A DNA stretch of 58,348 bases. It comes from a virus. Both the position numbers and the translations under genes were made by a program. Under the pieces are notes generated by a model. The model was not told where the DNA came from and searched no databases. It was given only the letters and a program-made list of their open reading frames with translations. How positions within the stretch are numbered: position 1 is the stretch's first letter; each line of letters opens with the position of its first letter. Shown here piece by piece: positions 4,787 through 58,348 of this stretch. The DNA is taken from IMG/VR virus record IMGVR_UViG_3300047554_000702, positions 1-58,348 of that record. One strand, given 5' to 3'.

Positions 4787-4862
4787 CCTTCGGGTTTGCA
4801 GGGGTTGCCTTGCGCTCGATCTTGCGCGCCAATGCTTCACGTTTCTGCTTGGGGCTACTCAT
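4719..4862 (-). CDS. Small basic protein downstream of primase
   Basis: 47 aa from the ATG at 4862, overlapping the end of the primase-helicase gene by 8 bp. Lys/Arg-rich N-terminus (MSSPKQKREALARKIERK), then a short helical end (LSAAEARAIVRTL). It is probably co-translated with the primase. It may bind nucleic acid because of its charge, but nothing specific is seen. Confidence 0.55.
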   Translation of the reverse strand: MSSPKQKREALARKIERKATPANPKVKPGDLTLSAAEARAIVRTLRS

Positions 4863-7179
4863 ATCCTTGATCCGTTCCGTACGTGCTGACATCTGCGACA
4901 GCTGCGCGCGAGTATAGCACCCCGCAAAGCGCAACGTCTTCCTGAAAATACGGCCTTAGTTGGCGACCGATCTCACGATAACCCATGCCTTCGAGCACGG
5001 CCCGGACGGCATGAGGCGGTACATTCCCGCGAACAACTTGCCGGTCGCGCAGATGCTTCATTGCTGCCAACTCGGACACCCATCCGGAGCGGAAGCCGGT
5101 GGCACCCGTCTCGACCGCTTCCTGGATGGCACGCTCGATCGGTGAGCGGCTGATTGCCACAGCCTCTGCCCAACTGGTCGTCCGAGGCGCGCGCATGGGT
5201 ATCGCGCCTTTGCCGATCGGATAATTGTGCAAGTAGTGCGAGATGTATTTGTGCCCGTCAGCTTCCAACCAACTGAACAAGCGCTTCATATAATCATCGT
5301 TCATGCCGAGCGCGAACAACATTTCCTCGGTCTGGATCGGGCTAAAGAACATCGCGTAGCGTCGCCCGTTTTTCGACACAGGTACCGCGTCTTTGTAGTT
5401 GGTGAAGAAACCCCAATTCGCAGGGTTGTCTTCCATCTGCTGATCGACACCCTTGGCCTGCACTTCGATCAACTTTTCGGAGATCAGCGGCTTGAGCACT
5501 TCGACCAGGTGACGCTTTTCATCGACGCGTATCTCGTCGGCCAGAATAAACACCTTGTTGCGCATCCACCCGTTGAACTTGCCGCCGCTGTCGCCCAACT
5601 GCTGCGCGTCCGGGAAGTGGACATACGGCAGTCCGATCGCCTGTGTCATAGCGTGCTTGATCACACCTTTGCCGATACCCTCAGCTGATTGGATCACCGG
5701 AGCCCATGGTATCTTGTAACCAGGATAACGAACCACGTGCGCCATCCAGTCGAGCAGGATGCGCAGATCGTTTTCATCGGGAATGATCAGGCGAAGGTGG
5801 TTCAAAAACGGGCTGACATCGCCCTGCAGCATCTCGATCTGTGGTCGGACGTAGGTGTTCACACCTTTACGACCCAGCACATCGGTTACGATCTCACCCG
5901 GCTCTCTGTCTGGCATGAATCGCAGGTGATCGACCTTTGGTACTGCCCATTGTGTCGATCGTGTAGCAGCGCGCCACGGTTCGTCGGTTGTCTTGCCGTC
6001 CGCTGTGATGATGAATTTCTTACCCGCGTAATGCGAACCGTTGAACTTGGTCGAGTCGTAAAGCTGACCGTTGGGTAGCAGCATCTTGCCCAGCGAACCG
6101 ACGAACACGCACCCCTTGAACCATTGCGCGCATTCGAGGTGGGTTAGCATCTCACCCCTGCAATCCAGTTCAGGCGGCTCGGTCTGACCCGCTGGCATGG
6201 GTGGTACACCCCCTGCGACCGGCGCAAGCGGCTGCGGTGACACACCCTCGCCGAATGCGACCACGGCCCGCAGGGACGGCACACGGCGTACCAGCGACGG
6301 CCAGCCCAACTCGGTACGGCGCAGGCTGTTCCACTGCTTGATGTTCTCGCCGATGTCGTTGCGCGTGTAGCGCGCGCACCAATTGGACCACATCGACACG
6401 AGGGTGGCTTCGTCGGTCAACGTCCAGCCCGCCTGCTTGATGGCAGCTGTCACAGCGATCCATTCGCCGCGATCGAGGTCGTTGGGGTCCATGAGATCCA
6501 GCGCACGCTTTAGCCATGCCAGCGACGGCGCGGCTTGGGCAGGGTCACCAAGTTCATGTCGCTCACCCGCACCACCTTCGAGCACCGTCACATGCGCTAC
6601 AGACGCTTCGAGTGCATCAACCGTGAGGGGTTGACCGTAACCGGGCAGCGCGTGGCAGGTGACCAAGTGACCAACCCCATACTTGTGATTGAGCGTGCCA
6701 GGGAGCCGCATGACGCGCGCTGCGTCGATCACGGCCTTGTCACCGTTGTAGGTCTGTCTGAGCCGCCGCTGAAGCCCTGAGAAGCGTTCCAGATCGGACG
6801 GGTAGTGCGTGACCGGCCAATAGACGTGATACTTGCCGGGGCTGCTCAGAACGGCAAACGAGGGCGGCGGCAGGTGCCGACCCGCTGCCTCGTATTGCTG
6901 CTGTGCATCAATGGCGTCGAGATCGATATAATGCGCGCGGATCATCGCCACGTTTTCGAGAGCCCGACCCACCCCGTCCAGAGCAGCGGGGGTCATGAAA
7001 ATGCCGTAGCCATGCTCGTTGTAGCCCTTGATCCACGGCCAGAGGCTGTGCAGGGTGCCGCGATTCGCATGGCCGGGGACGGATTTATCAGTGTCGTGAA
7101 GGGCGCGCAGATCGAGCGGTGTCGTGGCCGGATCGCAGCCGAGCGCTTGGACGAATGCTGTGGCGAGGTCGATGTTCAC
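4855..7179 (-). CDS. Bifunctional primase-polymerase/helicase
   Basis: 774 aa from GTG 7179. The N-terminal half is a prim-pol (AEP) domain: YIDLDAID at 84-91 carries the metal-binding DxD, SSPGKYHVYW at 112-121 supplies the HxxY-type motif, and ARVMRLPGTLNHK at 154-166 the conserved RLPGT. Residues about 220-300 match a PriCT-2 type linker. The C-terminal half is a D5/SF3-like helicase with Walker A SAEGIGKG at 498-505 and Walker B VFILADE at 543-549. This architecture makes primers and unwinds DNA in many phages and plasmids. It is third in a minus-strand operon, coupled (GTGA) to the GIY-YIG gene. Confidence 0.92.
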   Translation of the reverse strand: MNIDLATAFVQALGCDPATTPLDLRALHDTDKSVPGHANRGTLHSLWPWIKGYNEHGYGIFMTPAALDGVGRALENVAMIRAHYIDLDAIDAQQQYEAAGRHLPPPSFAVLSSPGKYHVYWPVTHYPSDLERFSGLQRRLRQTYNGDKAVIDAARVMRLPGTLNHKYGVGHLVTCHALPGYGQPLTVDALEASVAHVTVLEGGAGERHELGDPAQAAPSLAWLKRALDLMDPNDLDRGEWIAVTAAIKQAGWTLTDEATLVSMWSNWCARYTRNDIGENIKQWNSLRRTELGWPSLVRRVPSLRAVVAFGEGVSPQPLAPVAGGVPPMPAGQTEPPELDCRGEMLTHLECAQWFKGCVFVGSLGKMLLPNGQLYDSTKFNGSHYAGKKFIITADGKTTDEPWRAATRSTQWAVPKVDHLRFMPDREPGEIVTDVLGRKGVNTYVRPQIEMLQGDVSPFLNHLRLIIPDENDLRILLDWMAHVVRYPGYKIPWAPVIQSAEGIGKGVIKHAMTQAIGLPYVHFPDAQQLGDSGGKFNGWMRNKVFILADEIRVDEKRHLVEVLKPLISEKLIEVQAKGVDQQMEDNPANWGFFTNYKDAVPVSKNGRRYAMFFSPIQTEEMLFALGMNDDYMKRLFSWLEADGHKYISHYLHNYPIGKGAIPMRAPRTTSWAEAVAISRSPIERAIQEAVETGATGFRSGWVSELAAMKHLRDRQVVRGNVPPHAVRAVLEGMGYREIGRQLRPYFQEDVALCGVLYSRAAVADVSTYGTDQGYE

Positions 7180-46356: not shown

Positions 46357-46826
46357 CCCAGCGTGCCAACGCTTAACTCTCGGGGGGGGGGCTGGCACCT
46401 CCCCTTCCCTCACAGTGAATGCCAGACACCGTTCGGAGTACCTGTGAAACTCTGTGGCCCGTCCTGTTTCCCGGTGGAGCCGTACCGATGTTTCGTGCCG
46501 TTAGGCGGCGAGACGATGTGCCATTGCTGGCTCGTTGTCGTTGACAGTTAAGTCTTCTGTGCCGTTGCGGTGGCCCAAGCCGGATCGCGCTCAATTTCGC
46601 TCCACACCGTCGATCCTAGTTCACGCCCATCAACTGCACCGGACAGCAACGCCTATCCGTTCTGTTCAGCGTATCACTCGGTCATAACCTCACGGGCCGA
46701 GCCGGTGCAAATGGTGGACGTGGCGGGTACTGCCCCCGCGTCCGGTGTTTCCCTACGTTGATCGAGTTACGATCATCGACAGACTATATGTCCTCAATGC
46801 GTCCCTGCGGTCTGCCAGCGCCGCAT
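46357..46826 (-). ncRNA. ssrA: Circularly permuted (two-piece type) tmRNA
   Basis: Reading the minus strand, the acceptor half comes first: GTAGGGAAACACCGGACG (up to 46738), a T-arm GCGGG-GGCAGTA-CCCGC (46739-46723), CACGTCC (46722-46716), A and CCA ending at 46712. After an 83-nt intervening loop the other half starts with GGGCGTG (46628-46622), which pairs over all 7 bp with CACGTCC (one G-U). It continues AAC-TAGGATCGACGG (46618-46607), the tmRNA 5' signature. The tag frame GTC-AAC-GAC-AAC... (46545-46501) encodes VNDNEPAMAHRLAA, then TAA. GAG-c-GCGATC (46592-46583) can pair with GATCGT-aa-CTC (46774-46764) as helix P2. Exact ends, pseudoknots and a C10 run near 46382-46391 remain unresolved. 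Confidence 0.93.
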
Positions 46827-46832
46827 TCGAAT

Positions 46833-46861
46833 CACCTAGAACAAGTGGTAAGTTTTGTCAA
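46833..46861 (-). promoter_or_regulatory. tmRNA promoter with recurrent CTTACC element
   Basis: TTGACA at 46861-46856, 17 bp, TAGGTG at 46838-46833. The spacer holds AAAACTTACC (complement of GGTAAGTTTT at 46847-46856). Transcription should begin near 46826, just upstream of the acceptor half. Confidence 0.6.
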
Positions 46862-49375: not shown

Positions 49376-50083
49376 TCACCCCCAAGCGATCCAATTAATC
49401 CGTTCCAGTGCTTCTAGCGCTAAATCTCTGCCTGCGTGTCGCTGACGGATTCGCTCTGCGTGTGTCGCTCGCCTCTCCGGCGTCCAAGAAGCGCGCATAG
49501 ACTCAATTCGTGTGCGTCGGTGATCTTGATCTCTCCATATCTTTTGATTGATGTGCGAAACTTGATCACGCTCACCGTTTGCCCACTGTTTTCGCATTGC
49601 CTGACTTCGCTTCTTGCGCTCTTCAGCGGTCCAGACAATGTTGTTGGTGCCCTTTTTACCCGCACTTATCGCAGCCGCGTGAGCTTCAGACTTAGGTCGG
49701 CGCATCTTAAATCTTGTTTTATCACTGACTTTTCTACCGATCAAAGCGTCGGAAATCTTCTTTTTGGTGTGTTCCGACAGAGGGTTTCCGGTGTTTTCTG
49801 CGGTAAGTCTGCTGTTAAGTAGAATATCACCGTTGATGATTGTTTGGTCTATCCACCATTGTTCTCGTTGCATCAACTCAGAAGCACCGCAGTATTCTAC
49901 GACTGTGAAAATCATTTTATCGCCGTACTTTCGCCACGCCCTGTTCAATGCTTCACAGTGATGCCGCCCGTGCCGCATATCACTAAAGTGCCGGACTTTC
50001 CGGCGATTCAAACGAATCGAAGAGCCCACGTATACCGAACCACTCGGTGCAGTAATGAAATATATCCCTGAATTAGCCGCCAT
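49376..50083 (-). CDS. GIY-YIG homing endonuclease with NUMOD-type modules
   Basis: 235 aa. Catalytic domain at residues 5-90: GIYFITAPSGSVYVGSS, the RLNRRKVRHF helix with Arg, and EQWWIDQT with the Glu. The C-terminal part contains GNPLSEHTKKKISDALIGRK and further charged NUMOD3-like repeats (SEAHAAAISAGKKG, RSQAMRKQWANG), as in T4 Seg enzymes. It overlaps the large terminase 3' end by 11 bp and interrupts the usual terminase-portal junction. A mobile intruder in the late operon. Confidence 0.92.
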   Translation of the reverse strand: MAANSGIYFITAPSGSVYVGSSIRLNRRKVRHFSDMRHGRHHCEALNRAWRKYGDKMIFTVVEYCGASELMQREQWWIDQTIINGDILLNSRLTAENTGNPLSEHTKKKISDALIGRKVSDKTRFKMRRPKSEAHAAAISAGKKGTNNIVWTAEERKKRSQAMRKQWANGERDQVSHINQKIWRDQDHRRTRIESMRASWTPERRATHAERIRQRHAGRDLALEALERINWIAWG

Positions 50084-51782
50084 ACGACCCGATCATAACC
50101 TCGCTGCCCTGTCGCGGTGCAGGGAAGTAGCACTGTACAACAGCATCCGCAATATTAGGGCTGCGAGCACCATTGGGTTTTTTATCCACGAGCATGCGAA
50201 GTGACGACGCGCTGCGAATACTGGTTGGCTGGGCCAACTCTTTCATCACTTGGTGTAGCGCCGGGATGTCACTGGCGATGCTTATCAACTCGTGACCCTC
50301 GTACAACTCACCCTGCGTCCGAGCACGCCACGTCTTGTAGAACCGGTTGCGGACGGACCACCACGCCTGCGCCTTGAAGTTGTGATAGAAATCGCGATTG
50401 AGAGGGCTGTTGTCGTCGCCCGGAATGACGCGCTCGAACTGCCGCTGCACCGCGCCGCCCGCGTTCCACGGAGTTAGCACGAACTCGTCGAAATCCACGG
50501 CACCCGACTCAACCAGCCGGTTGTACTCACTCTTGACCGCCGACCCGACACCGATGCTGTCGTACTGGATCTCGATGCCGCGCAGGTTGCGGTCGCGCAG
50601 ATCGCCGAGCATGTTCCGACACGCGACGCCTGGATCGCGCTCGCCCCAATCACGTGCATGGCGTAGGACGTAACCCTGCCGGATCGCTATGGCGTTCTTG
50701 TCCATACCTTCGTCGGCAACGTCGAGCCCCGCCATCCACTGCGTGCTGTCGGCGATTGCGGCCAGCGCCGGGATGTAAAGGTGCGCGTCAATGGCAGCAG
50801 TGATCCACTCGTAGGAGATGATCGTGTTCTCGACAGCGGCTGAATAGTTGCGATCGACTTCCTGTGCGAAGACGTGCTGCATCCCTTCACGCTCAGCCTT
50901 TGCCTTGCGCTGATCGTACCACTCCTGTGTCTTCTCAGGATGGTCACGCCAATCCATGATGAAGACGCGCGGTGTGCCTTTGGGGATCGAGACACCCGGT
51001 TGCCATATCTCACCCGACTCACGCCGACGATGGAACACATTGCCGAGCCCGTTCACGCTCGAAATATCGACTTGGACGTTGGTGTTGTCACCAAGTGCAG
51101 CTTCGATCAGTTCGGGTCGTTCGTAGTGCGCCGCTTCGTCCTTGAAGTAGATCGCCTTACGACCACCGCGACCGATGTTGTCACCGCTTTCACCTGCAAT
51201 GATTGCACCGTTCTCGGTGTTGATGATCTTCATCAGCGCAGTGTTCCAGAGAGGTCGGAACTCCGGTGGCAAGCGTCGAATTATCTGTCGCATCTTCTCG
51301 AAGATACTGTCGGCATCACCTAGCTTGTCCACCAAGTCCTGCTTGCGTGAACCCCAACCGATTGCGTCCTGTGAGATGTATCGCAGTCGCCAGACGCAGT
51401 AAGCACAGGCGAGCCACGTGGCACCCATGTCGCGCGCCTTCTCGATCAGACCGCTTTCATCCGTTTTGCGCAAATCCTCGAAGAAGTCGATCAGTGCCGC
51501 TTGCCGTGCGAAGAACACGAACGGCATCCACTTGTTCGTCTGTTTGCGGGGGTTGTAGGTGTCGCACCAGTCCTGTATGAACTGCGCAGGCCGTGTCGCA
51601 TAGTATGTGTGAGCCTCGCGCAGCAGTGTGCGATCTGATCGCAGTGATGTGAGTGTTTGCATCCGCCAAGCGTAGACTCGTCGATAATCAGGGGGCCATT
51701 GGTCGTGTGTCAGCGCGCGAGGACGCCAAGGTTTGACGACTTGCTCGGTTTGTGCGTTCGGTGGATTGAACAGGTCGATCAC
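50073..51782 (-). CDS. terL: Terminase large subunit
   Basis: 569 aa from GTG 51782. ATPase: EKARDMGATW at 114-123 (a Walker A variant, as in many terminases) and IYFKDEAAH at 211-219 (Walker B with the catalytic Glu). Nuclease: GLDVADEGMDKN at 352-363, with further acidic residues later, including NIADAVVQC near the C-terminus. It packages DNA together with the small subunit and portal. Confidence 0.93.
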   Translation of the reverse strand: MIDLFNPPNAQTEQVVKPWRPRALTHDQWPPDYRRVYAWRMQTLTSLRSDRTLLREAHTYYATRPAQFIQDWCDTYNPRKQTNKWMPFVFFARQAALIDFFEDLRKTDESGLIEKARDMGATWLACAYCVWRLRYISQDAIGWGSRKQDLVDKLGDADSIFEKMRQIIRRLPPEFRPLWNTALMKIINTENGAIIAGESGDNIGRGGRKAIYFKDEAAHYERPELIEAALGDNTNVQVDISSVNGLGNVFHRRRESGEIWQPGVSIPKGTPRVFIMDWRDHPEKTQEWYDQRKAKAEREGMQHVFAQEVDRNYSAAVENTIISYEWITAAIDAHLYIPALAAIADSTQWMAGLDVADEGMDKNAIAIRQGYVLRHARDWGERDPGVACRNMLGDLRDRNLRGIEIQYDSIGVGSAVKSEYNRLVESGAVDFDEFVLTPWNAGGAVQRQFERVIPGDDNSPLNRDFYHNFKAQAWWSVRNRFYKTWRARTQGELYEGHELISIASDIPALHQVMKELAQPTSIRSASSLRMLVDKKPNGARSPNIADAVVQCYFPAPRQGSEVMIGSYGG

Positions 51783-52198
51783 GGTCGCACCAGAAAATCC
51801 ACCCCGCCACCGCTGTAAATGTCGCGCTGAGACGCAATGTGAACCGCATCAACAGGTGATGCACCGGCCAGCATGGCACCGTATGCAACCGCACCCCCTG
51901 ATCCAAGTGCGGCAGGTGTCTCGTGCTCGAAGAACCGACCTGTGTCGTTGTAGCAGAACACTTTGCCGTCGGTGGTGAGAACCAATGCTTCGCTTTTCTC
52001 CCACATTTGCAGTGGTTCCGAGCGATCGGAATTATACCACGCTAGGAACGCTCCGAGGTCGAACGCGCTGCCAGCGACACCAATGATGTCACCGTTGGTC
52101 GCCCTTGCAATCTTGCGCGTGTTGCAGTGGATCAGTCCATCACCTGTAACACGTCGATCTGCGGCCATCGTCCGACCGTCTGTCACCACCGTACTCAT
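51779..52198 (-). CDS. Ntn-hydrolase (proteasome beta/HslV-like) protein
   Basis: 139 aa. STVVTDGRTMAADRRVTG at the N-terminus resembles the Thr/Ser-nucleophile start of HslV-like hydrolases. GDIIGVAGSAFDLGAFLAWY and ALGSGGAVAYGAMLAGASPVDAVHIASQRD are the conserved Gly-rich core and helix of the family. The nucleophile would be Ser2 or Thr3 depending on N-terminal trimming. It is encoded between small and large terminase with 4-bp overlaps on both sides. Role unknown; protein processing during head assembly is conceivable. Confidence 0.82.
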   Translation of the reverse strand: MSTVVTDGRTMAADRRVTGDGLIHCNTRKIARATNGDIIGVAGSAFDLGAFLAWYNSDRSEPLQMWEKSEALVLTTDGKVFCYNDTGRFFEHETPAALGSGGAVAYGAMLAGASPVDAVHIASQRDIYSGGGVDFLVRP

Positions 52199-52827
52199 TC
52201 ATCGTCTCCGATAAGTCGGGCATATGCTTCACCTGCTTCAGTTGCGCTGACGCTTTCGGTGATGAGGGGCATTTCCTGTGCTGCACGTTCGGCGCGGCGG
52301 GACGTGCTGTCGCCCGTGTCGAGCCCCATGTATGCGGCCCACATCTTGAGTGCGGCGATTTTGTCGTGCGCCTGGATGCGGATCTTGACACGCTCACCAC
52401 CGCGTCCCTCGACATAATCCACGTCGATTTGCTTGATTGCACCGGATTTGCCGTCGCTTTGCAGCCGCACCATGTCGATGCTGGGTCGTCCGAAGTCGTC
52501 AATCGTCATGTAGTCGGTGATGTCGAACGTGCCGATCCCGACAATTTCGCTCAGATACGACTGCGGATTGACCTCGTCTGCATCGGCACGCTGCAGCACG
52601 CGCTCGGCAATTGCGGCCTGTACAAGCGGTCGATCGAGCCAGCCGTGATGATCGTTCCGGCGCACACTGTCGGGCAGTGCATGACTGAGCATCAAACGAA
52701 TCGACTGATTCGCCTGTCGCGCTGCCTCTGCCAGTCCATCAACCAGCCGATCGACAAACCGTCGTTCCGCTGCTGAAATTTGACCGTAGGCAGATCGGAA
52801 CATTGTCATAGGTGCTACCGCGTTCAT
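52195..52827 (-). CDS. terS: Terminase small subunit
   Basis: 210 aa. Starts NAVAPMTMFRSAYGQISAAERRFVDRLVDGL, includes a helical DNA-binding part (RPLVQAAIAERVLQRA), then the conserved YLSEIVGIGTFDITDYM and IRIQAHDKIAALKMWAAYMGL typical of Terminase_2/small terminase proteins. An alternative start is the internal ATG at 52809. The promoter at 52836-52863 would make the mRNA almost leaderless. Confidence 0.85.
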   Translation of the reverse strand: MNAVAPMTMFRSAYGQISAAERRFVDRLVDGLAEAARQANQSIRLMLSHALPDSVRRNDHHGWLDRPLVQAAIAERVLQRADADEVNPQSYLSEIVGIGTFDITDYMTIDDFGRPSIDMVRLQSDGKSGAIKQIDVDYVEGRGGERVKIRIQAHDKIAALKMWAAYMGLDTGDSTSRRAERAAQEMPLITESVSATEAGEAYARLIGDDE

Positions 52828-54416: not shown

Positions 54417-54444
54417 TCTACGATCTCCTGTGTCTGTGAGTCGA

Positions 54445-54472
54445 TCCCTACCACACGGTAAGTTTTATTCAA
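54445..54472 (-). promoter_or_regulatory. Candidate promoter of the DnaA-like operon with CTTACC element
   Basis: TTGAAT at 54472-54467, 16 bp, TAGGGA at 54450-54445, with AAAACTTACC in the spacer (complement of GGTAAGTTTT at 54457-54466). It gives a short leader with AGGAG before GTG 54416. The hexamers are weak; the shared spacer element is the stronger clue. Confidence 0.45.
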
Positions 54473-55120
54473 CCGAAAAATGTGCGGGGTGCCGGTGCGG
54501 ATTTCGAGGGGGTATACCCATTCTGACCAACCGGTTAGTTTTTGATTTTCGGTTCGTGTGGAAAATTTGTGTGGCGGTCATTCGCAACAATATTACGGGG
54601 TGGGGGGGGGGTCCACGCAACAATATTGCGCAAACCGGCCAACTCATTGATTTTGTTAGGGTTTATCGTGTGGCCTGTGGCGCGCCGATAATTATCGCTG
54701 ATCCACGTGCACCGGTCGCGCCAGGTCGAGCATCGTCACAGGTCGAGCGTCGCCGATGATTATCGGCCAAACGTCACGCGATTAACGTCATTGCGCAATC
54801 TTTTCACATTCGGCACGAAAACCGCAATGTAGCGATTGCGCAATAAGTTGCCACAGGAAATGTTGCGATTGCGTTTAATGCTCATTGTGGGGACTGTTTA
54901 ATGTGTAATTGAGAAACAACATTCTAAACGGGGACATAAACGGTTTACTTTGCAATCTGACAATCGCAACTATGACAAACCCACAAGCAACAAACGAACC
55001 ACATGAACCATGGCGACGCAACTTTAGCATAGAATTGCGTTTTCGCACAGAAAACAAAATCCGCAATGTGAAAAGATTGCGCAATCACGTCAGGGCAAAC
55101 CATAATTATCGATATTTCAC
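54473..55120. other. Non-coding repeat-rich control region, origin candidate
   Basis: About 650 bp without a convincing gene between divergent operons. It contains four TTGCGCAA palindromes (54626, 54791, 54836, 55077), three CCGCAATGT...ATTGCGCAAT units (two direct, one inverted), and three related palindromes (CGATAATTATCG at 54686, CCGATGATTATCGG at 54753, CATAATTATCG at 55101). There is also a G10 run (54602-54611) and an AT-rich stretch (about 54860-55060). A replication origin or major regulatory switch fits; the adjacent DnaA-domain protein supports the first. Confidence 0.6.
54789..55086. repeat. Long inverted repeat flanking 250 bp
   Basis: The 25 bp at 54789-54813, reverse complemented, match the 26 bp at 55061-55086 except for one inserted base and the final base. 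The core is AATGTGAAAAGATTGCGCAA. A shorter direct relative lies at 54822-54844. The arms are 247 bp apart and enclose the AT-rich stretch. Confidence 0.85.
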
Positions 55121-55149
55121 TTGATAAACGTCATGATTTAGCGAATAAC
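55121..55149 (+). promoter_or_regulatory. Promoter of the right plus-strand operon
   Basis: TTGATA at 55121-55126, 17 bp, AATAAC at 55144-55149, with one of the ATAATTATCG palindromes just upstream (55101-55111). It leaves a leader of about 30 nt with GGAG before the ATG at 55186. Confidence 0.5.
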
Positions 55150-55185
55150 AGTCCTACGGCGAATCACCGCCCTGGAGCGTAACAC

Positions 55186-55482
55186 ATGGCCCACCTGCTA
55201 GAAGTTAGACCACATGGCGCAAATTCCACTTTGGGCGCGCTTCCCGCAAATTCTTTGCGCGAAGCTGAGAACTTGCATCGCATTTTCGGGGGCTCAATTG
55301 TGAGCCCTTCCACGGGTATCGATTACACACCTTACACCGGCCCACTGTATAATCGTCATGGCCGCGAATATGCCGACGCTATCGCCCGCGCAGCTGATGC
55401 GCGCCGTCCGTTGAGCACGGCCTCAATTGCAGCACAGCAATCCGCTGCTTGGCAGATCCACGGCGCAAGGGCGGCACTGTGA
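55186..55482 (+). CDS. Hypothetical protein, first gene of right operon
   Basis: 98 aa with GGAG 8 bp before the ATG. The C-terminal half (GREYADAIARAADARRPLSTASIAAQQSAAWQIHGARAA) is helical. No domain recognised. Ends in a GTGA overlap with the next gene. Confidence 0.65.
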   Translation: MAHLLEVRPHGANSTLGALPANSLREAENLHRIFGGSIVSPSTGIDYTPYTGPLYNRHGREYADAIARAADARRPLSTASIAAQQSAAWQIHGARAAL

Positions 55483-55676
55483 AACGCGTCACACTGGCAC
55501 TAGCCGCGCTCGCAACGCTTGCGCTGCAGGTCACACATGGCCCGCGCCTGATAGGCTATCACTGCAGCGACGCGCCTAGCATCGCCGGGATCACATACAC
55601 CGGACCGCGCCTGGCACGCGAGGAATCGGATTTTATCGGCACATGCGCTGAGATAGCGCCAATTTTTGGAGAGTAA
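55479..55676 (+). CDS. Small exported or membrane protein
   Basis: 65 aa from GTG 55479. N-terminal signal-like helix (KRVTLALAALATLALQVTHG), then a short domain with two Cys (GYHCSDAP, IGTCAEIAP) that could form a disulfide. Probably secreted to the periplasm. Function unknown. Confidence 0.6.
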   Translation: MKRVTLALAALATLALQVTHGPRLIGYHCSDAPSIAGITYTGPRLAREESDFIGTCAEIAPIFGE

Positions 55677-55680
55677 CCAT

Positions 55681-55989
55681 ATGGCTTACACAGTGACGAC
55701 ATTTGACGATAGCGCGGACGGGATGGAGCGCTTGCGCAATCAATCCGAATTTATCTTGCTGGCATATCCCGCAAGCGATTCAACGCCTGACGACGTGCTG
55801 CAGCAATTCATTGACGACATCCAATCGTGTGACCGATTCGACGGTTTCGACTATGACGCGGCGCGCGCTGCAGTGAATGAATGGTACGACTCGGACATGC
55901 TCGCACGCGTCCTGCAGTCGACCGAATGGCCCGATGACGACGAGTCAGAATGGTGGCCCACATTTCGCCTTTATGTTGAATCGGAGTAA
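55681..55989 (+). CDS. Acidic hypothetical protein
   Basis: 102 aa from ATG 55681, preceded by GGAGAG. Very acidic (DDSADGMERL, DDVLQQFIDDIQSCDRFDGFDYD, EWPDDDESEWW). Charge like this is seen in DNA-mimic inhibitors of host DNA-binding proteins, but nothing else supports that role. Confidence 0.65.
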   Translation: MAYTVTTFDDSADGMERLRNQSEFILLAYPASDSTPDDVLQQFIDDIQSCDRFDGFDYDAARAAVNEWYDSDMLARVLQSTEWPDDDESEWWPTFRLYVESE

Positions 55990-55995
55990 CCGCAC

Positions 55996-56535
55996 ATGAC
56001 ACAGATATTCAGCACGGGATTCGGTCCATACACCTTCCCCGGCGACACAATCACCGCAGAGCGCGACGGGTTCACCATTACCGCCACTGTGCACGCTGAC
56101 TCGCACCACGGCGCACCATGGGAAGAATGCGACGGGCACGGACCTGTCAGTGACTGGCGCAATTATAACTACAGAGGATATTACAATAAGCGCCCTGGTG
56201 AATTACTCCTATGCGAGGATCACGGGCGCGCACGCTTCTATGACTTCAAAGAGGCTTGCCGCATCGCATTGCGTGACGGTTGGGGATTCTTGCCGCATCC
56301 CCTGACAATTGAGCGCGATACACCAAGCAATGGTGATTACACGGCTTGCGGTGGTTGGGCGCGTGCTGGCGATTTTTCGGCTTACGATCCGCAAAATTTC
56401 AATCGCGCTGAATTCACGCGCTGTAATTGGTCAAAAGACTGGCACGGTTCACACTGTGACACCTATTTTTCAGGTGTGTTAGTTAGTTTAGCAAGTGACG
56501 GTGAATCCGTAACCGTAGGGAGATTCTATTCGTGA
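55996..56535 (+). CDS. Hypothetical protein
   Basis: 179 aa. Tyr/Trp/Asp-rich, with PWEECDGHGPVSDWRN near 35-50 and LLLCEDHGRARFYDFKEACRIA near 70-91. This pattern recurs in unnamed phage and plasmid proteins. No catalytic motif. Coupled to the next gene by GTGA. Confidence 0.65.
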   Translation: MTQIFSTGFGPYTFPGDTITAERDGFTITATVHADSHHGAPWEECDGHGPVSDWRNYNYRGYYNKRPGELLLCEDHGRARFYDFKEACRIALRDGWGFLPHPLTIERDTPSNGDYTACGGWARAGDFSAYDPQNFNRAEFTRCNWSKDWHGSHCDTYFSGVLVSLASDGESVTVGRFYS

Positions 56536-56747
56536 CACTAATCGCAAAAGCCCTCGCATCACCCTACACCGCCATGACGTTTCGCACCCTGGCACGTCAC
56601 CGCGACTCAGCGCGCGGATTAGACACAACTGCAGCATTGCGATTGCTGAAGCGCAATGTTAGAGATGTATCACCGCACGCGAGTCGCGCGTTGCAATGGA
56701 GCATTGCGCGACAAATGCTTGCACACTGGCAGGAGAGTAACACATGA
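56532..56747 (+). CDS. Small basic helical protein
   Basis: 71 aa from GTG 56532, rich in Arg and Ala (TLARHRDSARGLDTTAALRLLKRN). Helical, possibly nucleic-acid binding. Coupled to both neighbours. Confidence 0.55.
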   Translation: MTLIAKALASPYTAMTFRTLARHRDSARGLDTTAALRLLKRNVRDVSPHASRALQWSIARQMLAHWQESNT

Positions 56748-56986
56748 CAAGCACATATATAGGCACACTTCGCAATGTGGAGCGCTTGCCTAGCAGTCGA
56801 AACGGCAACCCGCGTTATGCTGCATTGATTGTCACAGACTCGGGTGCAATCCTTCAGGTCCGGACTGCAGTCGACTCGTCACTCGGTTACAGTTTCACTA
56901 ATCACCGTGAAGGTTCGCGCGTTAGAGTCACTGTATCACTGCAGCGCGGCTATTGGGTCATTCAGCATATGGAGCAAGCGGCATGA
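56744..56986 (+). CDS. Small beta-barrel-like protein
   Basis: 80 aa. Alternating strands (YIGTLRNVERLPSSRNGNPRYAALIV, AILQVRTAV, SRVRVTVSLQRGYWVIQHM) suggest an OB-like fold. The ATG overlaps the preceding stop. Function unknown. Confidence 0.6.
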   Translation: MTSTYIGTLRNVERLPSSRNGNPRYAALIVTDSGAILQVRTAVDSSLGYSFTNHREGSRVRVTVSLQRGYWVIQHMEQAA

Positions 56987-57098
56987 AACCACACTAAGCG
57001 ATAAAGAGCGCGAACGTATATGCGCTCAATGGTTCGACATGCTGGCAATGCATCTCACGCGCGCATGGCGCAAACAGGGTCTGTACCCTGAAATTTAG
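56987..57098 (+). other. Open frame lacking a start codon
   Basis: A reading frame ending at 57098 translates to a plausible helical peptide (TLSDKERERICAQWFDML and AMHLTRAWRKQGLYPEI), but the only ATGs lie near its end. It may be a decayed gene or use a non-standard start. The remaining 67 bp to the next gene contain only GGAGAG before the ATG at 57166. Confidence 0.3.
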
Positions 57099-57165
57099 TG
57101 TCACCCGCGTTGCGGTATGGTCAGAGCGTGCCGCAATCGGTTAACATTGAAATGGAGAGTAACCT

Positions 57166-57810
57166 ATGACAAACGACACTCAGACTCGCACCGCATCAAT
57201 CCCCTTCAGCGGCTTTTACGAATCGTCGCATGATGCGGCACTAGATCAAGCGCTTGAACAAATGTTCAGCGACGACTCAGGGTGCGAGCGCACGCCTAGC
57301 TATGACATTGCCAGCGATGCAATCGACTGGCGCGCCGCACACCTTGCCTATGCGCAAGAATACGCCAAGAATCTCGCACTTGAGACTGAATCAACTTGGC
57401 AATTTGCTAAGTTGGATTCACCGCGCTTCTATAACTATCGCACTAATGAAATTGACGTAACGCTGAGCCTGTCCGAATTGCAGCGCATGCGCGACTATGT
57501 TGCAGCTGAGCACGAGTCGGCATGGCTTGAATTGTGCCGCGACCGACTCACCGCGCGTGACGGATTCATTCCGTTCTATGACAGCAATCCTTACACATGG
57601 GGCACGCTTGACACTTGGGAATCGCCGCAACTGTCCCTGCTAGTCGAATGCTACGTAGTGGCGAAACTCGGCGAGACTGAATCAGATGTGCAATGGTGGC
57701 TCAATTATGAATGTGTTGAAGATTGCAACGGTGACATCACTAGGTGCATTGAAAGCGCGATTCCGCAAGCCGCATGGGACAAAATTAACGCAATGGAGAA
57801 CGTGGCATGA
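57166..57810 (+). CDS. Conserved-looking hypothetical protein
   Basis: 214 aa with GGAGAG upstream. The opening ASIPFSGFYESSHDAALDQALEQMFSDD is a pattern I have seen in plasmid and phage proteins of unknown function. The protein is acidic with many aromatic residues (PFYDSNPYTWGTLDTWES). Acidic host-takeover or antirestriction-type proteins can look like this, but no assignment is justified. Confidence 0.65.
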   Translation: MTNDTQTRTASIPFSGFYESSHDAALDQALEQMFSDDSGCERTPSYDIASDAIDWRAAHLAYAQEYAKNLALETESTWQFAKLDSPRFYNYRTNEIDVTLSLSELQRMRDYVAAEHESAWLELCRDRLTARDGFIPFYDSNPYTWGTLDTWESPQLSLLVECYVVAKLGETESDVQWWLNYECVEDCNGDITRCIESAIPQAAWDKINAMENVA

Positions 57811-57998
57811 GTCGCCGCGCAGATCGTGAAGGCGTCCCGCGCATTCGTTATCTAGATTGGCCGCAACCAGCGCATTGCAGTCTGGCCAAGCGTGACGGGT
57901 TAGGCGCGTTTCGCAGATGTGGCATGTTTGACGCGTGTCGCGCCTATCTGAGAGACTTGCGAGCGTATCGCTTGCGCCACACGGAGCAACAGGCATGA
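57807..57998 (+). CDS. Small basic protein
   Basis: 63 aa, ATGA-coupled on both sides. Arg-rich with Cys and His (MSRRADREGVPRIRYLDW, RCGMFDACRAYLRDLRAYRLRH). Possibly nucleic-acid binding. Confidence 0.55.
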   Translation: MSRRADREGVPRIRYLDWPQPAHCSLAKRDGLGAFRRCGMFDACRAYLRDLRAYRLRHTEQQA

Positions 57999-58150
57999 CA
58001 CATTGGACACAAGCGGAACGCGATCTAGCAATTAGTGGCCGGGTATACTTTCGGTACATCTGCGAACCGGATATGCGCCGCAAGGTTTGTCGCGATCTTG
58101 ACAGCGTAAAAAGCGGTCACGGCGCACTTGTTTTCGACTGGCCAGACTAA
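57995..58150 (+). CDS. Small protein, last gene of right operon
   Basis: 51 aa from the coupled ATG 57995. MTHWTQAERDLAISGRVYFRY then a charged middle with two Cys. Followed by a C12 run (58151-58162) and a strong terminator. Function unknown. Confidence 0.55.
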   Translation: MTHWTQAERDLAISGRVYFRYICEPDMRRKVCRDLDSVKSGHGALVFDWPD

Positions 58151-58183
58151 CCCCCCCCCCCCTACATATCCGCGCCGAGTAAC

Positions 58184-58221: not shown

Positions 58222-58261
58222 CAGCATGGAGCACGTGTAACAGCATGAACCATTAGCGCCG

Positions 58262-58348
58262 CCCTACGGCACCTGCCGAGCCCGCAGGATCGATCACGCT
58301 CGCCTGCCCTACGGCAACTGCCGAGCCCGCAGGATCGATCACGCTCGC
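58262..58348. repeat. Terminal 45-bp tandem repeat, right copy array
   Basis: One full 45-bp unit (58262-58306) and 42 bp of a second. The 87 bp equal positions 1-87 except for one base (A at the 11th position of the last unit, C at the left). The unit boundary at the end lacks CTG, so simple circular joining would not give a perfect unit. This points to terminal redundancy or assembly collapse. Confidence 0.9.

What the first reader, a model, noticed from the sequence alone, without database searches (positions are those of the whole stretch)
54417..55185. Candidate replication origin: iterated TTGCGCAA sites, inverted repeats and palindromes next to a DnaA-like gene
A 770-bp gene-free divergent region contains four TTGCGCAA palindromes, three CCGCAATGT/ATTGCGCAAT units (one inverted) forming a near-perfect 25-bp inverted repeat 247 bp apart, an AT-rich core and three CGATAATTATCG-like palindromes. 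The gene downstream of the leftward promoter encodes a protein with a DnaA domain IV. This density of organised repeats is unmatched elsewhere in the window.
Basis: partly seen in the sequence, partly recalled or inferred. Interest (0 to 1): 0.75.

Follow-up and report, generated by a model that had tools for sequence, protein, structure and literature searches.

The report
Phage replication origin with initiator-specific repeats
A gene-free stretch of a bacterial virus genome carries clustered copies of a short DNA word around an easily melted core, and comparison with related viruses suggests it is where the virus starts copying its DNA, probably recognised by the tail end of the virus's own primase-helicase rather than by the DnaA-like protein encoded nearby.

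Summary
Window 54417-55185 has four TTGCGCAA, a 26-nt inverted repeat (25/26, 254 nt between arms; higher-scoring than any in 60 shuffled genomes) and the lowest-GC 300 bp of the 58-kb genome. The two relatives with the syntenic region (L005, L007) show that the conserved unit is the 6-mer ATTGCG (11/9/9 copies, about 1 expected each), not TTGCGCAA (4/2/0).

Most likely it is the replication origin. The phage encodes a primase-helicase with a probable C-terminal winged helix (4855-7179, minus). In 7 of 18 relatives of that protein, a 7-mer iterated in both orientations lies within 700 bp 3' of its gene (37 of 3,614 other windows), often around AT-rich DNA, in the order primase - array - TerS - TerL. 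The word differs between lineages; in the clearest comparison it follows the primase C-terminus (W/L005 same word, 77%; W/L010 different, 48%), and it does not follow TerS. The anatomy resembles SaPI/PICI and P4 origins.

In the window itself the sites are mixed in orientation, so an operator role is not excluded. Nothing was measured in the laboratory.

The parts
54417..55185 (.). Divergent noncoding region as a whole: proposed origin plus control sites
   Evidence: syntenic counterparts in L005 and L007
54457..54481 (.). Conserved block GGTAAGTTTTATTCAACCGAAAAAT near the first leftward gene (probable promoter/operator of the leftward operon)
   Evidence: Near-identical in L005 and L007
54557..54565 (-). 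Single DnaA-box match TTTTCCACA
   Evidence: matches to the consensus are not in excess in the window
54583..54597 (.). Palindrome CGCAACAATATTACG, first of a pair
   Evidence: D7; pair conserved in L005 and L007
54616..54630 (.). Palindrome CGCAACAATATTGCG, second of the pair, 33 bp after the first with a poly-G run between
54686..54697 (.). Palindrome CGATAATTATCG (related copies at 54754-54765 and 55100-55111)
   Evidence: CGATNATTATCG absent from the L005 and L007 counterparts
54785..54810 (+). Left arm of the 26-nt inverted repeat
54790..54873 (.). First cluster of ATTGCG/CGCAAT sites (starts at 54790, 54794, 54823, 54835, 54839, 54868; mixed orientation)
   Evidence: enrichment
54874..55033 (.). 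AT-rich core between the two clusters (60-bp windows with GC 0.35-0.48): proposed melting site
55034..55085 (.). Second cluster of ATTGCG/CGCAAT sites (starts at 55034, 55062, 55076, 55080; mixed orientation)
55065..55090 (-). Right arm of the 26-nt inverted repeat
4855..7179 (-). Primase-helicase (774 aa): RepB_primase, PriCT_2 and DUF5906 matches; proposed initiator that binds the ATTGCG sites
4858..5142 (-). C-terminal part of the primase-helicase (about residues 680-774), predicted winged-helix-like; proposed DNA-reading domain

Best explanation
The region is the phage's replication origin, of the iteron type used by self-loading initiator helicases. Two clusters of ATTGCG/CGCAAT sites flank the most AT-rich stretch of the genome. 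The phage's own primase-helicase (4855-7179, minus) is proposed to bind the sites through its C-terminal winged helix, assemble helicase rings beside the core, melt it and prime both strands. The adjoining palindrome pair and GGTAAGTTTT block are probably control sites of the divergent operons. Shown here: the sites, the inverted repeat, the AT-rich core, their recurrence in two syntenic relatives, and comparable arrays beside primase genes in other relatives. Inferred: binding, melting and origin activity.
For: ATTGCG is the most or second most enriched 6-mer in the counterpart regions of three phages (11/9/9 copies, about 1 expected each). Lowest-GC 300 bp of the genome lies here, and in P106B and X2_24 the lowest-GC window lies in a gap between early genes upstream of TerS. 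The inverted repeat exceeds 60 shuffles; L005 has a 41-nt perfect one. Relatives carry other iterated words upstream of TerL. Within 700 bp 3' of the primase gene, 7 of 18 loci have a word iterated in both orientations, against 37 of 3,614 other windows (seen in the sequences and positions). Gene order primase - TerS - TerL holds wherever both terminase genes were detected. Primase C-terminus: W/L005, same word, 77% (core 74%); W/L010, different word, 48% (core 65%). TerS does not follow the word. SaPI Rep recognises iterons downstream of its gene by its C-terminal domain (PMC7581432).
Against: In the window the sites within each cluster are mixed in orientation, not two clean opposed sets. 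The array is about 8 kb from the primase gene, counted round the circle. L007 has no long inverted repeat. GC3 skew gives no support. The 7-of-18 figure is not a formal test: about ten windows per locus count as near, and some background windows are the same hot spots shifted. The winged helix is a prediction with no significant fold match. No binding or replication data exist.
Confidence: 0.6

Rival explanations
1. A multi-operator control hub: a dimeric phage or host regulator binds the dyads and palindromes to switch the divergent early and late operons; the AT-rich DNA is promoter DNA and replication starts elsewhere.
For: The region lies between divergent operons. Sites form dyads such as GATTGCGCAATC. 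The CGCAACAWTATTRCG pair recurs near TerS of phages with unrelated terminases. CGCAA is also in excess in the rightward early genes beyond synonymous-codon shuffling (16 seen, 8.3 expected).
Against: It does not explain why comparable arrays of other words sit directly 3' of primase genes. The promoter scan found no more sites than in shuffles. Both roles may be true.
Confidence: 0.25
2. A packaging start (pac) site bound by the terminase small subunit.
For: The array lies upstream of TerS here and in relatives; TerS of W and L010 is only 37% identical, and their words differ.
Against: L317 and L319 share the word ACTTCAC although their TerS are only 35% identical, no more alike than non-sharers. 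In L044 the array is 12 bp after the primase frame and about 4 kb from TerS. No TerS or TerL match was found within 10 kb 3' of the L312 primase, which has an array.
Confidence: 0.08
3. An origin bound by the neighbouring DnaA domain IV protein.
For: The domain match is real and the gene is about 0.6 kb away. One DnaA-box match lies in the region.
Against: Gene not found in L005 or L007, which have the region; PF08299 in none of eight related records. DnaA-box matches are not in excess in the window.
Confidence: 0.04
4. An invertible DNA switch, with the 26-nt repeats as recombination sites around a promoter.
For: Arm length and spacing are in the range of known inversion switches (general knowledge, not tested here).
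Against: No PF00589 or PF00239 match in the window or L005 genome; L007 has no comparable repeat.
Confidence: 0.01

Closest known systems
SaPI/PICI replication origin with its Rep initiator helicase (PMC6092414, PMC7581432)
   Same: Iterated short sites beside AT-rich DNA; initiator with a helicase domain and a C-terminal DNA-binding domain; in several relatives the array is directly downstream of the initiator gene.
   Different: Full-size phage, not a satellite. In the window the array is about 8 kb from the initiator gene and the sites are mixed in orientation.
Phage P4 alpha protein and its origin (as described in PMC4234260)
   Same: One protein with primase and helicase parts and a winged helix that binds origin repeats.
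   Different: P4 alpha has a bacterial (Toprim) primase; the window's protein has an archaeo-eukaryotic-type RepB_primase. No P4 structure was among the Foldseek hits shown.
pRN1 and Bordetella phage BIP-1/BPP-1 replication proteins (PMC4234260)
   Same: Archaeo-eukaryotic-type primase, PriCT_2 (in the Bordetella phages), helicase and winged helix in one protein, with the proposed origin 3' of the gene.
   Different: A stem-loop rather than iterons was proposed as the origin there.
Nitratiruptor phage NrS-1 polymerase (my reading of the PDB entries named only 'Primase', 6k9c/6lrb)
   Same: Profile match over the helicase part (E 1.3e-4).
   Different: Identification from memory; no origin comparison was made.
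Rhizobium phages vB_RglS_P106B and RHph_X2_24
   Same: Closest isolates by TerL (58%); primase-helicase 49-50% identical; lowest-GC window in a gap between early genes upstream of TerS.
   Different: No ATTGCG array; other repeated words, and inverted repeats at noise level.

Membership tests
SaPI/PICI-type iteron origin | Iterated short sites in excess of chance | tested here: met
   ATTGCG 11 copies, 1.18 expected
SaPI/PICI-type iteron origin | Two iteron sets flanking an AT-rich region | tested here: inconclusive
   Two clusters flank the lowest-GC stretch, but sites within each are mixed in orientation; cleaner in L044, L317 and L324
SaPI/PICI-type iteron origin | Located directly 3' of the initiator gene | tested here: not met
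   About 8 kb from the primase gene in the window; met in several relatives
SaPI/PICI-type iteron origin | Initiator C-terminal domain binds the iterons | not testable with these tools
   Indirect only: C-terminal identity against word sharing
SaPI/PICI-type iteron origin | Supports autonomous replication with its initiator | not testable with these tools
   Needs a plasmid test
Winged-helix initiator (P4 alpha-like) | C-terminal winged helix | tested here: inconclusive
   AlphaFold2 model with winged-helix element order, mean pLDDT 83; no Foldseek hit at E <= 0.001
   One exact consensus match in the region; fewer matches in the window than in shuffles
Terminase pac site | Site sequence follows TerS | tested here: not met
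   L317 and L319 share a word with TerS 35% identical
Terminase pac site | Virion DNA ends map to the site | not testable with these tools
   No reads available
Invertible switch | Site-specific recombinase in the genome | tested here: not met

The most novel reading that the evidence does not exclude
[quoted passage not shown] each lineage has its own iteron word, matched to the winged-helix tail of its primase-helicase, and opposed iterons account for the stem-loop origins proposed for such proteins.
Probability: 0.4. Interest if true: 0.65.

Novelty: new variant of a known kind. Interest (0 to 1): 0.5.

Why it matters
Replication origins are unknown for most tailed phages. If this is right, the origin of this phage group can be located from sequence alone, its recognition word read off and its initiator named. 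It would connect full-size phages with PICI, P4 and pRN1 replicons, and make initiator-origin specificity testable by exchanging one short domain on a laboratory plasmid.

Tried and rejected
Nucleotide searches of the phage collection with the region and with 25 kb of the window: no match. Relatives of the 216-aa DnaA-like protein in viral contigs: none confirmed. Pattern scan for GTAAGTTTTNNTCAANNGAA: 32 stretches; apart from the L005 and L007 contigs none looked related. L127, found through a small early gene, has no such repeats in its first kilobase and no TerL match in its record. Scan of bacterial genomes for paired GCAAYAWTRTTGC: mostly Bacteroidetes sites of the form TGCAACATTGTTGCA, which by context I take to be metal-regulator boxes; uninformative for the phage. 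GC3 skew: no support for an origin. Solved-structure search with the C-terminal domain alone: weak ribosomal S3 hits only; Foldseek: nothing significant. L007's primase is not on its contig; L304 from the same sample has complementary gene content and a 77% identical C-terminus, but that they are one phage is inference. L076's hot spot is a coding repeat. Phage BLAST with the palindrome pair: chance-level hits.

Full report
What the window is. It is a 58,348-base virus record. Both ends carry the same tandem repeat of about 43 bp, so the genome is probably circular or circularly permuted and nearly complete. TerL places it nearest to Rhizobium phages RHph_X2_24 and vB_RglS_P106B (58%); no record in the phage collection reaches 60%. 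Structural genes run leftward from TerS (52195-52827) and TerL (50073-51782); small genes run rightward from 55186.

Checking the observation. The features are present. Four TTGCGCAA lie in the region and three elsewhere; with local composition kept, 4 are seen against 0.06 expected. The inverted repeat has 26-nt arms (25/26) with 254 nt between; its score of 23.5 exceeds the best in each of 60 shuffled genomes (maximum 20.0). The lowest-GC 300-bp window of the genome is here (0.39). Corrections: CCGCAATGT occurs exactly only twice in the region; only one CGATAATTATCG-like palindrome is perfect; the DnaA-like gene is not immediately adjacent and its Pfam score equals the cut-off. By single-motif enrichment alone the region is one of several top places.

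What is conserved. L005 (TerL 81%) and L007 (76%) have syntenic counterparts. Three elements recur: a block like GGTAAGTTTTATTCAACCGAAAAAT at the leftward end; a pair of CGCAACAWTATTRCG-like palindromes, 31-33 bp apart start to start, around a poly-G run; and an array of ATTGCG/CGCAAT, the most or second most enriched 6-mer in each region (11, 9 and 9 copies, about 1 expected). TTGCGCAA as such is not conserved (4, 2, 0), nor is CGATNATTATCG. L005 has a 41-nt perfect inverted repeat with 210 nt between arms; L007 has no comparable one.

The DnaA-like gene. Its protein has a GcrA-like N-terminal match just below that family's cut-off and a DnaA_C match at its C-terminus. A homologue of its C-terminal part is in L004. 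It was not found in L005 or L007, and PF08299 was found in none of the records of L005, L010, L013, L015, L017, L319, L320 and L322. A conserved site and a usually missing partner do not make a good pair.

The same place in other phages. A 7-mer scan of terminase relatives found iterated words of other sequence upstream of TerL, several in noncoding gaps: L046 GTTAAGA (12 copies), L010 ATACAAC (7), L075 GTTAACA, and L044 ATCGCCC three times, about 60 bp of AT-rich DNA, then four times inverted. The L044 array starts 12 bp after an 825-aa frame that matches the window's primase. In P106B and X2_24 the lowest-GC window of the genome (0.24 and 0.35) lies in a gap between early genes upstream of TerS; the inverted repeats there are at noise level genome-wide.

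The likely partner. The 774-aa protein at 4855-7179 (minus) has RepB_primase, PriCT_2 and DUF5906 matches. A search with an alignment of six homologues gave 79 loci. In 7 of 18 loci tested, a word iterated in both orientations lies within 700 bp 3' of the primase gene, against 37 of 3,614 other windows. About ten windows per locus count as near, and some background windows are the same hot spots shifted, so this is suggestive and not a formal test. The DNA itself shows opposed sets around AT-rich DNA in L317 (ACTTCAC) and L324 (ACTTCATC) and, less cleanly, in L312, L316, L325 and L329. The order primase - TerS - TerL holds wherever both terminase genes were detected.

Which protein reads the word. 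W and L005 share ATTGCG; their primase C-termini are 77% identical, cores 74%. W and L010 have different words; 48% and 65%. That contrast fits a C-terminal reader. L317, L319 and L324 share ACTTCA words with C-termini 45-55% and cores 55-76% identical, which neither adds to nor removes support. TerS does not follow the word: L317 and L319 TerS are 35% identical, no more than non-sharers. An AlphaFold2 model of the last 135 residues (mean pLDDT 83) has the element order of a winged helix. Foldseek gave no significant match, though many of the noise-level hits are winged-helix proteins.

Comparison with known systems. SaPI Rep helicases recognise, with their C-terminal domain, iterons directly downstream of their gene (PMC7581432). 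[quoted passage not shown] P4 alpha binds origin repeats by a winged helix, and the pRN1 and Bordetella phage BIP-1 proteins have a similar domain order, with a stem-loop proposed as origin (PMC4234260). By anatomy the phage arrays work like these. The window itself fails one feature (adjacency to the initiator gene) and is inconclusive on another (two clean opposed sets), so it is not filed as a member; it is a variant.

Limits. No binding, melting or replication was measured. GC3 skew does not support an origin here. A control-hub reading is compatible with the same sites, and both roles may be true. The palindrome pair recurs near TerS in phages with unrelated terminases, which points to a regulator for that element at least.

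Noticed in passing
46453-46855 (-): A permuted, alphaproteobacterial-type tmRNA gene (RF01849, 97.5 bits, cut-off 50) between the major head protein and an upstream gene; the tag frame reads about NDNEPAMAHRLAA then stop (my reading of the alignment). Not found by ARAGORN, nor in the relatives' loci searched. It suggests an alphaproteobacterial host.
   Followed up: partly
1-110 and 58260-58348: The same tandem repeat of about 43 bp (CCCTACGGCA...CACGCTCGC) at both ends, so the record is probably a circular or circularly permuted genome cut inside a repeat array.
   Followed up: partly
236-330: Five tandem copies of a roughly 20-bp unit (CAGGGGGGAAGCAATGCCACT) at the start of the rightward genes.
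   Followed up: no
54583-54630; L084, L086, L087, L089, L130, L131, L135, L145: Clusters of GCAAYAWTRTTGC palindromes occur in noncoding DNA, often upstream of TerS, in phages with unrelated terminases; some also carry repeated CCCCCCATAC. The binding protein is unknown.
   Followed up: partly
54602-54611 and 58150-58161: Homopolymer G and C runs of 10-12 bases; the first lies between the conserved palindromes and its G-rich character is kept in L005 and L007.
   Followed up: no
55186-58000: CGCAA is in excess in the rightward early genes beyond synonymous-codon shuffling (16 seen, 8.3 expected, sd 2.2).
   Followed up: partly
361-381 and 54458-54478: The element GTAAGTTTTNTTCAANNGAA occurs twice, once near the start of the 360-917 gene and once at the left end of the divergent region.
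   Followed up: no
51779-52198 (-): A small protein between TerS and TerL matches the proteasome-subunit family (PF00227, above its cut-off); a homologue is at the same place in L010.
   Followed up: no
L010:2014-2088 (-): A type II hammerhead ribozyme match in a related phage (43 bits, cut-off 37).
   Followed up: no
L005:3850-4070: A long tandem array with an 18-bp period (CTCGATCTGCTCAGGCTG) inside the counterpart of the candidate origin region.
   Followed up: no
L084:9150-9430: A long inverted repeat and repeated GTCCCTGAT words beside a primase gene and a transcription-antiterminator-like gene: another candidate origin.
   Followed up: partly
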